From Alkalicaulis satelles (lineage in GTDB: Bacteria > Pseudomonadota > Alphaproteobacteria > Caulobacterales > Maricaulaceae), in the NCBI RefSeq assembly GCF_008630495.1, contig NZ_VWOJ01000002.1, positions 573,001 to 637,000 of the forward strand: 64,000 bases of DNA. The letters run 5' to 3'. The notes under the pieces were generated by a model. That model was given only the letters and a program-made list of their open reading frames with translations, did not search any database and had not been told where the DNA came from. Positions 1 to 2,301 of this stretch are shown here, in pieces. The position numbers and the translations under genes were made by a program. Position 1 is the first letter of the stretch; each line of letters starts with the position of its first letter.

Positions 1-1356
1 CGCGTCCATGCCATGCCCGCCGGAAGCGCCCTCCTGCACGTAGGAGAGCAGCATGGTGTCGTCATAGGGCGCGGGGTGGATGTCATGGCGGGCGAACACC
101 GCCAGATCATATTTGAAATTCTGGCCCAGCTTCAGGATCGCCGGGTCTTCCAAGAGCGGCTTGAGACGGCCCAACGCACTGGCCATATCGATCTGCTCGG
201 GCCGCCCGCCCCCGTCGGCCAGATCGCCGCCCGAATGGCCCAGCGGGATATAGCAGGCCTCGCCCGGGCGCACCGCCAGCGATACGCCCACCAGGCGCGC
301 CGCACTCGCCGACAGGGCGTCCGTCTCCACGTCCACCGCCACGACGCGCGCTGCTCGGGCGCGCGCGATCCAGGCGTCCAGCGCCTCCAGGGTCTGAACG
401 GTCTTGTAGGCGGAGCGATCGATGGGCGCGGTGGCGTCGCCGGTCTCGTCCGCAGGGCCGGCGCCCAGCGCCTCCTCGATCCGGCGCGTCAGGGTGCGAA
501 ATTCCATGGCCCTGAGGAAGCCCACCAGCCGCTCGCCATCGGGATCGGCGGCGCCAAAACTCTCCAGCGGCGCAGGCGTGGGCGTATCGGCCTTCAAGGT
601 CACCAGCTGGCGCGACAGCCGGGCGTTCTCAGCGTGTTCGATCAGACTTTCGCGGCGTTTGGGCTGTTTGATCTCTTCGGCGCGCGCCAACAGCGTATCG
701 AGATCGCCATATTCGGTGATCAGCTGGGCGGCGGTCTTGATCCCGATGCCCGGCACGCCGGGCACATTGTCCACGCTGTCGCCGGCCAGGGCCTGCACAT
801 CGATGACCTTTTCGGGCGGCACGCCGAATTTCTCGATCACCTCCTCGCGCCCGATGCGGCGTACTTTCATGGGATCGAGCAGGGTCACCTGGTCATTGAC
901 CAGCTGCATGAGGTCCTTGTCGGAAGACGCAATGGAGACGCGCGCCCCGGCCTCGGCGGCCTGGCGCGCATAGGCGGCGATCAGATCATCGGCCTCATAG
1001 CCCTCCAGCTCGATGCAGGGCAGGTCAAAGGCCCCGGTGGCGTCCCGGATCAGCGCAAATTGCGGCACCAGGTCTTCGGGCGGCTCGGGCCTGTTGGCCT
1101 TGTAGCCGTCATAGAGCGCGTTGCGGAAGGTGACGCCGGAATGGTCGAAAATCACCGCCAGATGGGTCGGCGCATCCTCGCCCTTGAGGTCTTTCAACAG
1201 CTTCCAGACCATGGCGCAAAAGCCCTGCACCGCGCCCACCGGCGCGCCGTCGGAGCGGGTCAGGGCCGGCAGGGCGTGATAGGCGCGGAAGATGAAGCCC
1301 GACCCGTCCACCAGATAGACATGGGACTGGGCGTCAACGGGGCGGGTTACGGCCAT
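1..1356 (-). CDS. polA: DNA polymerase I, N-terminal part (cut by window edge)
   Basis: This is the first 452 residues of DNA polymerase I, which fills gaps during Okazaki fragment maturation and excision repair. Residues 1-290 form the 5'-3' exonuclease: VYLVDGSG (13-20), AVIFDHSG (67-74), the acidic EGYEADDL (118-125), ASSDKDL (143-149) and the helix-hairpin-helix around GDSVDNVPG (192-200). From about residue 320 a 3'-5' exonuclease domain begins. It keeps VDVETDAL (341-348) and NFKYD (413-417), so proofreading is probably active. The polymerase domain lies beyond position 1. The start is the first ATG of the frame. The SOS-boxed small gene lies 84 bp upstream on the same strand and could be co-transcribed with it. 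Confidence 0.96.
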   Translation of the reverse strand, partial: MAVTRPVDAQSHVYLVDGSGFIFRAYHALPALTRSDGAPVGAVQGFCAMVWKLLKDLKGEDAPTHLAVIFDHSGVTFRNALYDGYKANRPEPPEDLVPQFALIRDATGAFDLPCIELEGYEADDLIAAYARQAAEAGARVSIASSDKDLMQLVNDQVTLLDPMKVRRIGREEVIEKFGVPPEKVIDVQALAGDSVDNVPGVPGIGIKTAAQLITEYGDLDTLLARAEEIKQPKRRESLIEHAENARLSRQLVTLKADTPTPAPLESFGAADPDGERLVGFLRAMEFRTLTRRIEEALGAGPADETGDATAPIDRSAYKTVQTLEALDAWIARARAARVVAVDVETDALSASAARLVGVSLAVRPGEACYIPLGHSGGDLADGGGRPEQIDMASALGRLKPLLEDPAILKLGQNFKYDLAVFARHDIHPAPYDDTMLLSYVQEGASGGHGMDA

Positions 1357-1365
1357 GGGAGGGCT

Positions 1366-1412
1366 CCGGCTGGCGAACAGGGCAGGGACGCCAAGCTAGG
1401 CCCGCCAGCCGG
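1366..1412 (-). terminator. Inverted repeat between the SOS-boxed gene and polA
   Basis: CCGGCTGGCG (1366-1375) and CGCCAGCCGG (1403-1412) are a perfect 10 bp inverted repeat with a 27-base loop. There is no T-run. It may be a weak or Rho-dependent terminator, or an attenuator that limits read-through from the upstream gene into polA. It could also be a chance repeat in GC-rich DNA. Confidence 0.35.
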
Positions 1413-1440
1413 GAGGGGCAATCTGTGCGAGGCAGGCGCG

Positions 1441-1749
1441 TCAGGCGTGAGCGAACAGATCGCCCTGGGGGGCGCGCGCAGGCGCCATGGCCGGCGCAAT
1501 ATCCCGGCGCGGGGTGCGCGACAGGGTGCGCGACGGCGCAGGCGCGATCACCGGCTCGGCGTTCGACAGGGTCAGGCCCAGCTCGCCCGCCTTGGCGCGG
1601 ATGGCGCTGTCGGGCCGGCCCAGGCGCAGGCTGATCAGGCGCACCGGGGCGCCCTTGCGCGCCAGAGCCCGCAATTGCGCCAGATCCTCGCCACGCCAGC
1701 GCTTGCCGGCATTGCGCGCATATCCACCATTCGAAGCGCTGTAAGCCAT
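1441..1749 (-). CDS. Small SOS-controlled HTH-like protein of unknown function
   Basis: The product has 102 residues. The ATG at 1749 is chosen because a GGAAGGAG ribosome site precedes it and a good promoter fits just upstream; a longer reading would start inside the LexA boxes. Residues 18-58 resemble a short SANT/Myb-like helix-turn-helix (WRGEDLAQL, LISLRLGRP, AIRAKAGELG), a family common but uncharacterised in alphaproteobacteria. The middle is rich in Pro, Ala and Arg. The extreme C-terminus contains QGDLF (95-99), which fits the QxxLF beta-clamp-binding pattern. Two LexA boxes cover the promoter, so damage induction is expected. polA follows in the same direction. Function is unknown; DNA binding and clamp contact are inference. 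Confidence 0.75.
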   Translation of the reverse strand: MAYSASNGGYARNAGKRWRGEDLAQLRALARKGAPVRLISLRLGRPDSAIRAKAGELGLTLSNAEPVIAPAPSRTLSRTPRRDIAPAMAPARAPQGDLFAHA

Positions 1750-1770
1750 GAGTCTGCTCCTTCCAGAACA

Positions 1771-1819
1771 GAACATAGGCGGAACACGCGGCGCTGTCAA
1801 GGATGTTCGGTTAATGTTC
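1771..1819 (-). promoter_or_regulatory. Promoter with two LexA (SOS) boxes
   Basis: Two exact alphaproteobacterial LexA boxes are present. One reads GAACATAGGCGGAAC (1771-1785, GTTC-N7-GTTC on the minus strand). The other reads GTTCGGTTAATGTTC (1805-1819). On the minus strand TTGACA (1800-1795), 17 bases and TATGTT (1777-1772) form a near-consensus sigma70 promoter. The proximal box overlaps the -10 element and the distal box lies just upstream of the -35 element, a layout that suits tight LexA repression of the small gene at 1441-1749. Confidence 0.85.
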
Positions 1820-1833
1820 CGTTTGCGCGGACT

Positions 1834-2301
1834 CTACCAGCTGCCGGTATTGTCCATGCTGGCCCAGGGCTCGGCGGGCGCCAGATGCTCGCCGCGCTGC
1901 AAAAGCTCGATGGAGATTCCATCCGGGCTGCGCACAAACGCCATATGCCCGTCGCGCGGCGGGCGGTGGATCACATAGCCCAGGGCCTGCAGCCGGGCGC
2001 ACAGGGCGTAGATATCGGCCACCCGGAAGGCCAGATGGCCGAAATTGCGCGCCCCGCCATAGTCTTCCGGGTCCCAGTTATGGGTCAGCTCGATCATGGG
2101 CAGACCCGCAGGCAGCGGGCCTTCGTCCAGCGCCTCGATCCCCGCCCGGCGCAGATCGTCCGGCGCGGCCAGGAAAATCAGCGTGAAGCGGCCCTTTTCG
2201 CTGGACTTGCGCCGCACCTCTTTCAGGCCCAGCCCCTCGCAGAAAAAGCGCAGCGAGGCGTCCACATCGCTGATGCGCACCATGGCGTGCAGATATTCCA
2301 T
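1834..2301 (-). CDS. gloA: Lactoylglutathione lyase (glyoxalase I), VOC fold
   Basis: This 155-residue protein has the size and two beta-alpha-beta-beta-beta modules of bacterial glyoxalase I, which isomerises the methylglyoxal-glutathione hemithioacetal to lactoylglutathione in the cytoplasm. Likely metal ligands are His5, Glu71, His89 and Glu132, placed as in the E. coli enzyme. NFGHLAF (87-93) and SPDGISIELL (125-134) are typical family motifs. The start is the only reasonable ATG. The next gene upstream on this strand is a membrane protein 11 bp away, so the two may be co-transcribed. Some VOC relatives have other activities, but the ligand set fits glyoxalase well. Confidence 0.88.
   Translation of the reverse strand: MEYLHAMVRISDVDASLRFFCEGLGLKEVRRKSSEKGRFTLIFLAAPDDLRRAGIEALDEGPLPAGLPMIELTHNWDPEDYGGARNFGHLAFRVADIYALCARLQALGYVIHRPPRDGHMAFVRSPDGISIELLQRGEHLAPAEPWASMDNTGSW

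What the first reader, a model, noticed from the sequence alone, without database searches (positions are those of the whole stretch)
1441..1819. LexA-controlled small protein with a putative beta-clamp motif directly upstream of polA
Two exact GTTC-N7-GTTC LexA boxes bracket a near-consensus promoter for a 102-residue HTH-like protein that is followed on the same strand by polA. The protein ends in QGDLF, which fits the QxxLF clamp-binding pattern found at the C-termini of many replication and repair proteins. Together this suggests a damage-induced DNA-binding factor that meets the sliding clamp, possibly co-induced with Pol I. I know of no described function for the family.
Basis: partly seen in the sequence, partly recalled or inferred. 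Interest (0 to 1): 0.72.

Follow-up and report, generated by a model that had tools for sequence, protein, structure and literature searches.

The report
Damage-induced DNA-binding clamp-ligand protein
A small protein of unknown function in a group of marine bacteria appears to be switched on by DNA damage and to carry a DNA-binding head and a tail that fits the replication clamp, which would make it a new kind of damage-time partner of the replication machinery.

Summary
The 102-aa gene (1441-1749, minus) has a near-consensus promoter, one exact LexA box over the -10 and a second upstream of the -35. The tail reads QGDLFAHA, so the motif lies three residues from the end. A search of 137 genomes of the same family found 23 full-length homologs in four genera. 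All 23 keep the box over the -10 and Q-x-[DE]-L-F near the C-terminus (QLELF 11, QGDLF 6, QMDLF 3, QPDLF 3), although the linker diverges and the Q, L and F codons vary synonymously. None of 39 examined relatives outside this group has such a tail. The HTH resembles that of the cell-cycle regulator GcrA. The polA link is not a family trait: 6 of 23, each with its own conserved promoter-like element. Best reading: a LexA-induced, DNA-binding beta-clamp ligand that occupies clamps during damage. Clamp binding and cellular role are inferred. Six members, the window's genome among them, show no DnaE2 over cut-off. New variant of a known kind.

The parts
1441..1749 (-). 102-aa protein: N-terminal arm, GcrA/Myb-like HTH, Pro/Arg-rich linker, C-terminal QGDLFAHA
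1570..1701 (-). HTH domain (residues 17-60; model helices 20-32, 36-43, 47-57)
   Evidence: hhalign to own GcrA
1468..1563 (-). variable, probably disordered linker (residues 63-94; mean pairwise identity 0.35 against 0.705 in residues 9-62)
1453..1467 (-). putative clamp-binding motif QGDLF (residues 95-99)
   Evidence: Q-x-[DE]-L-F in 23 of 23 homologs
1757..1762 (-). ribosome-binding site AAGGAG, 7 nt before the ATG
   Evidence: sequence, (read by eye)
1771..1785 (-). proximal LexA box GTTCCGCCTATGTTC, overlapping the -10
   Evidence: conserved 23 of 23
1772..1800 (-). sigma70-like promoter TTGACA-17-TATGTT
1805..1819 (+). distal LexA box GTTCGGTTAATGTTC, upstream of the -35
   Evidence: an exact distal box in 11 of 23, start-to-start spacing 34-36 bp in 11 of 11
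1393..1421 (-). polA's own promoter-like element TTGCCC-17-TAGCTT
   Evidence: conserved in all 6 polA-adjacent genomes, (read by eye; not called by the consensus scans)
1..1356 (-). polA, runs off the window
   Evidence: neighbour only, 6 of 23 genomes
1834..2301 (-). glyoxalase-like gene (gloA-like) upstream; found on the same strand upstream in 21 of 23

Best explanation
The gene encodes a DNA-damage-induced ligand of the DNA polymerase III beta sliding clamp. LexA sits on the box over the -10 (and, in the window, also on the box beside the -35) and keeps the gene off; LexA cleavage releases a strong promoter. The small protein binds DNA with its GcrA-like HTH and, through a flexible linker, puts its C-terminal Q-x-[DE]-L-F peptide into the cleft of the clamp. 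Abundant and tethered next to the ring, it would compete with the motifs of other clamp partners, displacing or slowing the replicative polymerase at damaged forks and gaps and giving time for repair. Shown by sequence comparison: conserved LexA box, promoter and tail. Predicted: HTH fold. Inferred: LexA binding and induction (about 0.95), clamp binding (about 0.8 for the family, 0.65 for the window's QGDLF variant), DNA binding (about 0.85), and the braking role (about 0.35-0.4, against recruitment).
For: 23 of 23 full-length homologs keep a GTTC-N7-GTTC box over the -10. In this genome exact boxes also precede lexA (TIGR00498 above cut-off), a Y-family polymerase, uvrA (partial, cut by the locus) and ssb (named by eye). 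GTTCN7GTTC is the published Caulobacter LexA box (PMC12700426, passages). The tail is invariant at Q, L and F with D or E at position 3, while Q uses 2 codons, L 4 and F 2, and the linker is only 35% identical. The review PMC11139829 (passages) defines the motif as Q-aliphatic-x-[L/M]-[F/L] (or with one more residue), calls the Leu/Phe pair most favourable and QLDLF the strongest peptide in several studies; QLELF (11) and QMDLF (3) fit if Met counts as aliphatic. The Y-family polymerase, whose box differs from the window's in one base, carries an internal QLDLF. None of 39 distinct related loci outside the group has a QxxLF tail. Foldseek: GcrA DNA-binding domain 5yiu, rmsd 0.9 over 44 columns, probability 0.99. 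A clamp competitor has a precedent in SocB of Caulobacter, a toxin that inhibits elongation by binding the clamp via the usual motif (PMC9690074, passages).
Against: No binding or expression data exist. Position 2 of the motif is Gly or Pro in 9 of 23, the window included, which should weaken binding. Nothing in the sequence separates a brake from a recruiter. No Foldseek match reaches E 0.001 (GcrA domain 0.32), and the GcrA sequence match in the PDB search is E 0.76. Single exact boxes are no commoner genome-wide than the reversed pattern. The group is narrow: 113 of 137 genomes of the family gave no match at E <= 1e-4, and none of 14 genomes from nine other genera has the SOS form after gloA.
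Confidence: 0.4

Rival explanations
1. Recruiter or accessory factor: LexA-induced as above, but the HTH and tail tether the clamp to damaged DNA or to a partner, helping translesion or gap-filling synthesis rather than blocking Pol III.
For: Box nearly the same as that of the Y-family polymerase with a QLDLF motif. In mycobacteria ImuB needs its clamp motif to work and to form foci (PMC10421592, passages). A DNA contact plus a clamp contact suits a tether.
Against: No catalytic or recognisable partner domain. 6 of 23 members, the window's genome among them, have no DnaE2 over the family cut-off, so it is not an obligate part of that mutasome.
Confidence: 0.28
2. Transcription factor: a LexA-induced GcrA-like DNA binder that regulates or blocks cell-cycle promoters; the tail brings it to clamps on newly replicated DNA, or is a secondary feature.
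For: HTH overlays the GcrA DNA-binding domain; hhalign to own GcrA probability 48.7, E 1.8e-4, while LexA and a DnaA-like protein give 0.2; the A2 profile also picks up proteins that look like GcrA by eye (L133, L134).
Against: No sigma-binding C-terminal domain as in GcrA (PMC7403470, passages); the recognition helix differs (RPDSAIRAKA against VTRNAVIGKV). A clamp motif is not expected of an ordinary regulator.
Confidence: 0.13
3. The tail is not a clamp ligand: a damage-induced plain HTH protein whose QxxLF tail binds something else (for example a protease adaptor or itself).
For: Position 2 is Gly or Pro in 9 of 23; a short motif can arise by chance, about 0.001 per protein.
Against: Protein-level conservation in 23 of 23 with a diverged linker and synonymous codon change; the dominant form is the textbook clamp motif.
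Confidence: 0.12

Closest known systems
SocB (Caulobacter clamp-binding toxin)
   Same: A protein that occupies the clamp cleft through a short motif (PMC9690074, passages)
   Different: SocB is the toxin of the SocAB pair and is degraded by ClpXP (abstract of PMC5422525, listing). Here no partner gene is conserved downstream and control is by LexA. SocB's sequence was not compared
ImuB / SOS-induced Y-family polymerases
   Same: LexA-controlled, carry a clamp motif
   Different: No polymerase or polymerase-like domain; 102 aa
GcrA (PF07750)
   Same: DNA-binding domain fold, then an unstructured linker
   Different: No sigma2-binding domain; ends in a clamp-type motif; under LexA
Unnamed small proteobacterial/phage HTH proteins (RNxGKxW ... 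KPTNQSPY)
   Same: Same HTH and N-terminal motif; that family's profile A3 finds the window's gene at E 7e-15. PHROG 323 matches all 11 members tested at E <= 0.1, best 6e-9
   Different: The examined ones lack the linker, the QxxLF tail and a conserved LexA box
Eukaryotic p21 (analogy only; the PCNA-binding part in passages, the rest recalled)
   Same: Damage-induced small clamp ligand
   Different: No homology; different clamp

Membership tests
LexA regulon (alphaproteobacterial GTTC-N7-GTTC type) | Exact box in the promoter | tested here: met
   23 of 23 homologs, overlapping the -10
LexA regulon (alphaproteobacterial GTTC-N7-GTTC type) | LexA with the same box in the same genome | tested here: met
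   lexA (TIGR00498 above cut-off) preceded by an exact box
LexA regulon (alphaproteobacterial GTTC-N7-GTTC type) | Induction by damage, LexA binding | not testable with these tools
   -
Beta-clamp ligands | Q, then L/M, then F/L at positions 1, 4, 5 | tested here: met
   23 of 23
Beta-clamp ligands | Aliphatic residue at position 2 | tested here: inconclusive
   Leu or Met in 14 of 23; Gly or Pro in 9 of 23, the window's QGDLF included; the review calls this position less restricted
Beta-clamp ligands | Motif in an accessible, unfolded stretch | tested here: met
   No secondary structure after residue 62; block pLDDT 48-67 from residue 71 on
Beta-clamp ligands | Physical binding to DnaN | not testable with these tools
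   single chains only could be modelled
GcrA | GcrA-type DNA-binding domain | tested here: inconclusive
   Structural overlay good, sequence weak; no Pfam GcrA hit
GcrA | C-terminal sigma-interacting domain | tested here: not met
   102 aa, disordered tail; the genome has a separate full GcrA
ImuABC mutasome | ImuA/ImuB-type sequence and DnaE2 in the genome | tested here: not met
   no family hit; no DnaE2 over cut-off in own genome and 5 other members of 23, present in 17 of 23
SocAB-type toxin-antitoxin | Adjacent partner gene | tested here: not met
   polA downstream in 6 of 23; no polA match in the other 17, where the longest downstream ORF is on the opposite strand in 16 (in G039 it is the second longest, dapB). 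Upstream gloA-like in 21 of 23
Small KPTNQSPY HTH family | Conserved C-terminal KPTNQSPY after the HTH | tested here: not met
   replaced by linker plus QxxLF

The most novel reading that the evidence does not exclude
A bacterial counterpart of p21: an SOS-controlled, non-catalytic clamp ligand that stops or slows replication after damage, made in one family of marine Alphaproteobacteria by giving a small GcrA-like HTH protein beside gloA a LexA box and a clamp-binding tail.
Probability: 0.3. Interest if true: 0.82.

Novelty: new variant of a known kind. Interest (0 to 1): 0.62.

Why it matters
SOS-induced clamp ligands that I know of are mostly polymerases or their partners (recalled). A small DNA-binding clamp ligand under LexA would be a direct, easily tested way in which a bacterium controls who holds the clamp during damage. 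It would also show how an SOS effector can be made from a common small HTH gene: a plain HTH gene without box or tail sits at the same place after gloA in another genus of the family (G532). QLELF, QMDLF, QGDLF and QPDLF homologs form a natural series for measuring how position 2 sets clamp affinity in living cells.

Tried and rejected
Co-induction with Pol I: rejected as a family trait (6 of 23; own promoter-like element in the six). Obligate ImuABC partner: rejected (6 of 23 members without DnaE2 over cut-off; two of the six, G138 and G599, are fragmented assemblies, so those two absences are soft). Membership in GcrA, and in a toxin-antitoxin pair: rejected as in the membership table. Phage origin: not supported. 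tblastn found relatives in 6 phage records; I read 3 of the 6 and those are plain KPTNQSPY-type HTHs with no tail. A pattern scan of viral contigs confirmed none of 40 candidate stretches, but such a scan misses distant relatives. Relatives in 5 plasmid records were not read. Named family: none in Pfam or NCBIfam for it or for three plain KPTNQSPY-type relatives; for the G532 plain HTH only a Pfam match below cut-off, E 0.22. Dropped before counting: L010 (49% over 57 residues with one stop, no HTH half and no exact box; chance or a relic, I cannot tell) and L011 (stop inside, probably spurious). L012 and L013 are plain HTHs without tail; L012 was not tallied and L013 is the same place as L102. 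Of 14 non-family genomes with a hit, 10 got loci and were examined, 4 (G127, G675, G738, G748) were not. Literature: none of the ten searches listed a paper that by title or abstract start is on this gene; the lists (20 of 63; 20 of 22; 10 of 23) were capped. Maricaulis with SOS response and LexA: 0 papers. Oceanicaulis with DNA damage: 5, none on this. I saw passages of PMC7403470, PMC12700426, PMC10421592, PMC3901139, PMC11139829 and PMC9690074, and listings only for the rest.

Full report
Observation. The ORF at 1441-1749 (minus) encodes 102 aa and ends QGDLFAHA. Upstream lie TTGACA-17-TATGTT (10 of 12; the only promoter-like site found in 1250-1900), an exact LexA-type box over the -10 and another next to the -35. 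The genome search found one copy. Of four related named records, three are titled Oceanicaulis and one only Alphaproteobacteria; the first, L014, lies on a contig of the same length as that of genome G138 of the window's genus. So the window is probably Oceanicaulis or very near; this is inferred.

Family. With an 11-row profile I searched 137 genomes of the same family: 24 matched at E <= 1e-4. 23 are full-length members: 14 of 15 genomes of the window's genus, 6 of genus g6, 1 of g5, 2 of g312. The fifteenth genome of the genus (G593) cannot be judged, because its gloA-like gene lies at a contig edge. The 24th (G532, genus g9) has a plain 60-aa HTH after gloA, with neither box nor tail. I examined the stretch after gloA in 14 genomes of nine other genera: only G532 has an HTH gene there (ORFs of 45 aa or more, 700 bp). 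Samples of 385 genomes of the class and 398 of the phylum gave plain or unrelated HTH-type matches besides the window. In these searches only part of each genome's first-look candidates was scored (for example 13 of 67), so misses are possible.

Regulation. All 23 members have GTTC-N7-GTTC starting 35-41 bp before the ATG, over a TA[TC]GTT -10; 22 of 23 have TTGAC as -35 (the other, G590, has TTGAT, by eye); 11 of 23 have a second exact box upstream, 34-36 bp away in all 11. The spacer is mostly CGC[CT]TAT. In the window's genome exact boxes also precede lexA, a Y-family polymerase, uvrA and ssb (ssb by eye). The published Caulobacter box is the same (PMC12700426, passages). Against this, exact boxes are as common genome-wide as the reversed control (40 against 42), so placement and conservation carry the case, not mere presence.

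Tail. Q, L and F are invariant in 23 of 23 and position 3 is always D or E. Forms: QLELF 11, QGDLF 6, QMDLF 3, QPDLF 3; 0-3 residues follow. Codons at Q, L and F vary (2, 4 and 2 codons), while mean pairwise identity is 0.705 for residues 9-62, 0.35 for the linker, 0.756 for the motif. On a tree of the 23 plus G532 the tail form needs 4 changes, the least possible; most branches are weak (3 of 21 starred) and the root is unsure. QLELF occurs in all four genera and is probably ancestral (inference). Of 39 distinct related loci outside the group (20; 23, of which 4 repeat earlier loci), none has QxxLF in the last 15-20 residues, and 2 have an exact box (L096; L022, which is also L129) in the 200-250 bp looked at. 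Several of the 39 are weak or GcrA-like matches, and the frame shown for L120 is not an HTH. The published motif definition is Q-aliphatic-x-[L/M]-[F/L] (PMC11139829, passages); 14 of 23 fit if Met is counted as aliphatic, and 9 of 23, the window among them, have Gly or Pro at position 2.

Structure. The AlphaFold model (23 rows; mean pLDDT 72.3, pTM 0.49) has three confident helices, 20-32, 36-43, 47-57 (pLDDT about 90 over 21-60), and a disordered tail. Foldseek against the PDB: 2lvs (CRISPR-repeat-binding protein) and 5yiu (Caulobacter GcrA DNA-binding domain; rmsd 0.9 over 44 columns, probability 0.99), none with E below 0.001. Sequence searches agree weakly: 2lvs E 1e-5, a DnaJ homolog (2cqq) E 0.24, GcrA 7ye1 E 0.76; hhalign to the genome's own GcrA 48.7% probability, E 1.8e-4, with two controls at 0.2%; plain BLASTP found nothing useful.

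Neighbours. gloA-like upstream in 21 of 23 (not in the held DNA of G536 and G601); polA downstream in 6 of 23 (G000, G138, G594, G595, G597, G598). In the other 17 there is no polA match; the longest downstream ORF is on the opposite strand in 16, and in G039 the second longest is (dapB). dapB matches in G039, G537 and G601. In the six, TTGCCC-17-TAGCTT before polA is conserved (read by eye), which argues that polA has its own promoter. DnaE2 over the curated cut-off is present in 17 of the 23 and absent in 6, the window's genome included (136 genomes of the family were drawn).

Mechanism. Regulation and conserved tail are the firm parts. The simplest joint reading is a damage-induced DNA-binding clamp ligand. 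Brake and recruiter are not separable by sequence. I lean to the brake because the promoter is near consensus, the protein is small and has no recognised catalytic or polymerase-like domain, the commonest tail is close to the strongest known peptide, and clamp-occupying inhibitors exist (SocB; PMC9690074, passages). The Gly/Pro forms weaken this for the window's own clade.

Noticed in passing
L027 (own genome C1:94025 region), 1526-1900: Exact LexA-type box (GTTCTTATAGTGTTC) just before a 124-aa protein resembling DnaA domain IV (NF004688 and TIGR00362, both below cut-off): a possible damage-linked DnaA-like protein.
   Followed up: partly
L044 (own genome C1:981947 region): Exact box between an mraZ-like gene (named by eye) and a divergent RES/Xre-type antitoxin gene (TIGR02293 above cut-off).
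   Followed up: partly
L020/L122, L125, L126 (genomes G429, G884, G877): Plain small HTH relatives in another family (f74) also sit tail-to-tail with a gloA-like gene, in 3 of 4 genomes of that family with a hit (not in G899, L127); the gloA/HTH neighbourhood may be older than the SOS version.
   Followed up: partly
L030, 1397-2782: LexA-boxed Y-family polymerase, below the cut-off of all ten NCBIfam models that it matches, with an internal QLDLF clamp-type motif, in a genome without DnaE2 over cut-off.
   Followed up: partly
L010 (genome G143): Weak match to residues 47-101 with one stop and no HTH half or exact box: chance or a relic of the gene in a genus that otherwise lacks it.
   Followed up: partly
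window 625-639: Third exact GTTC-N7-GTTC match, inside the polA coding region; probably chance.
   Followed up: no
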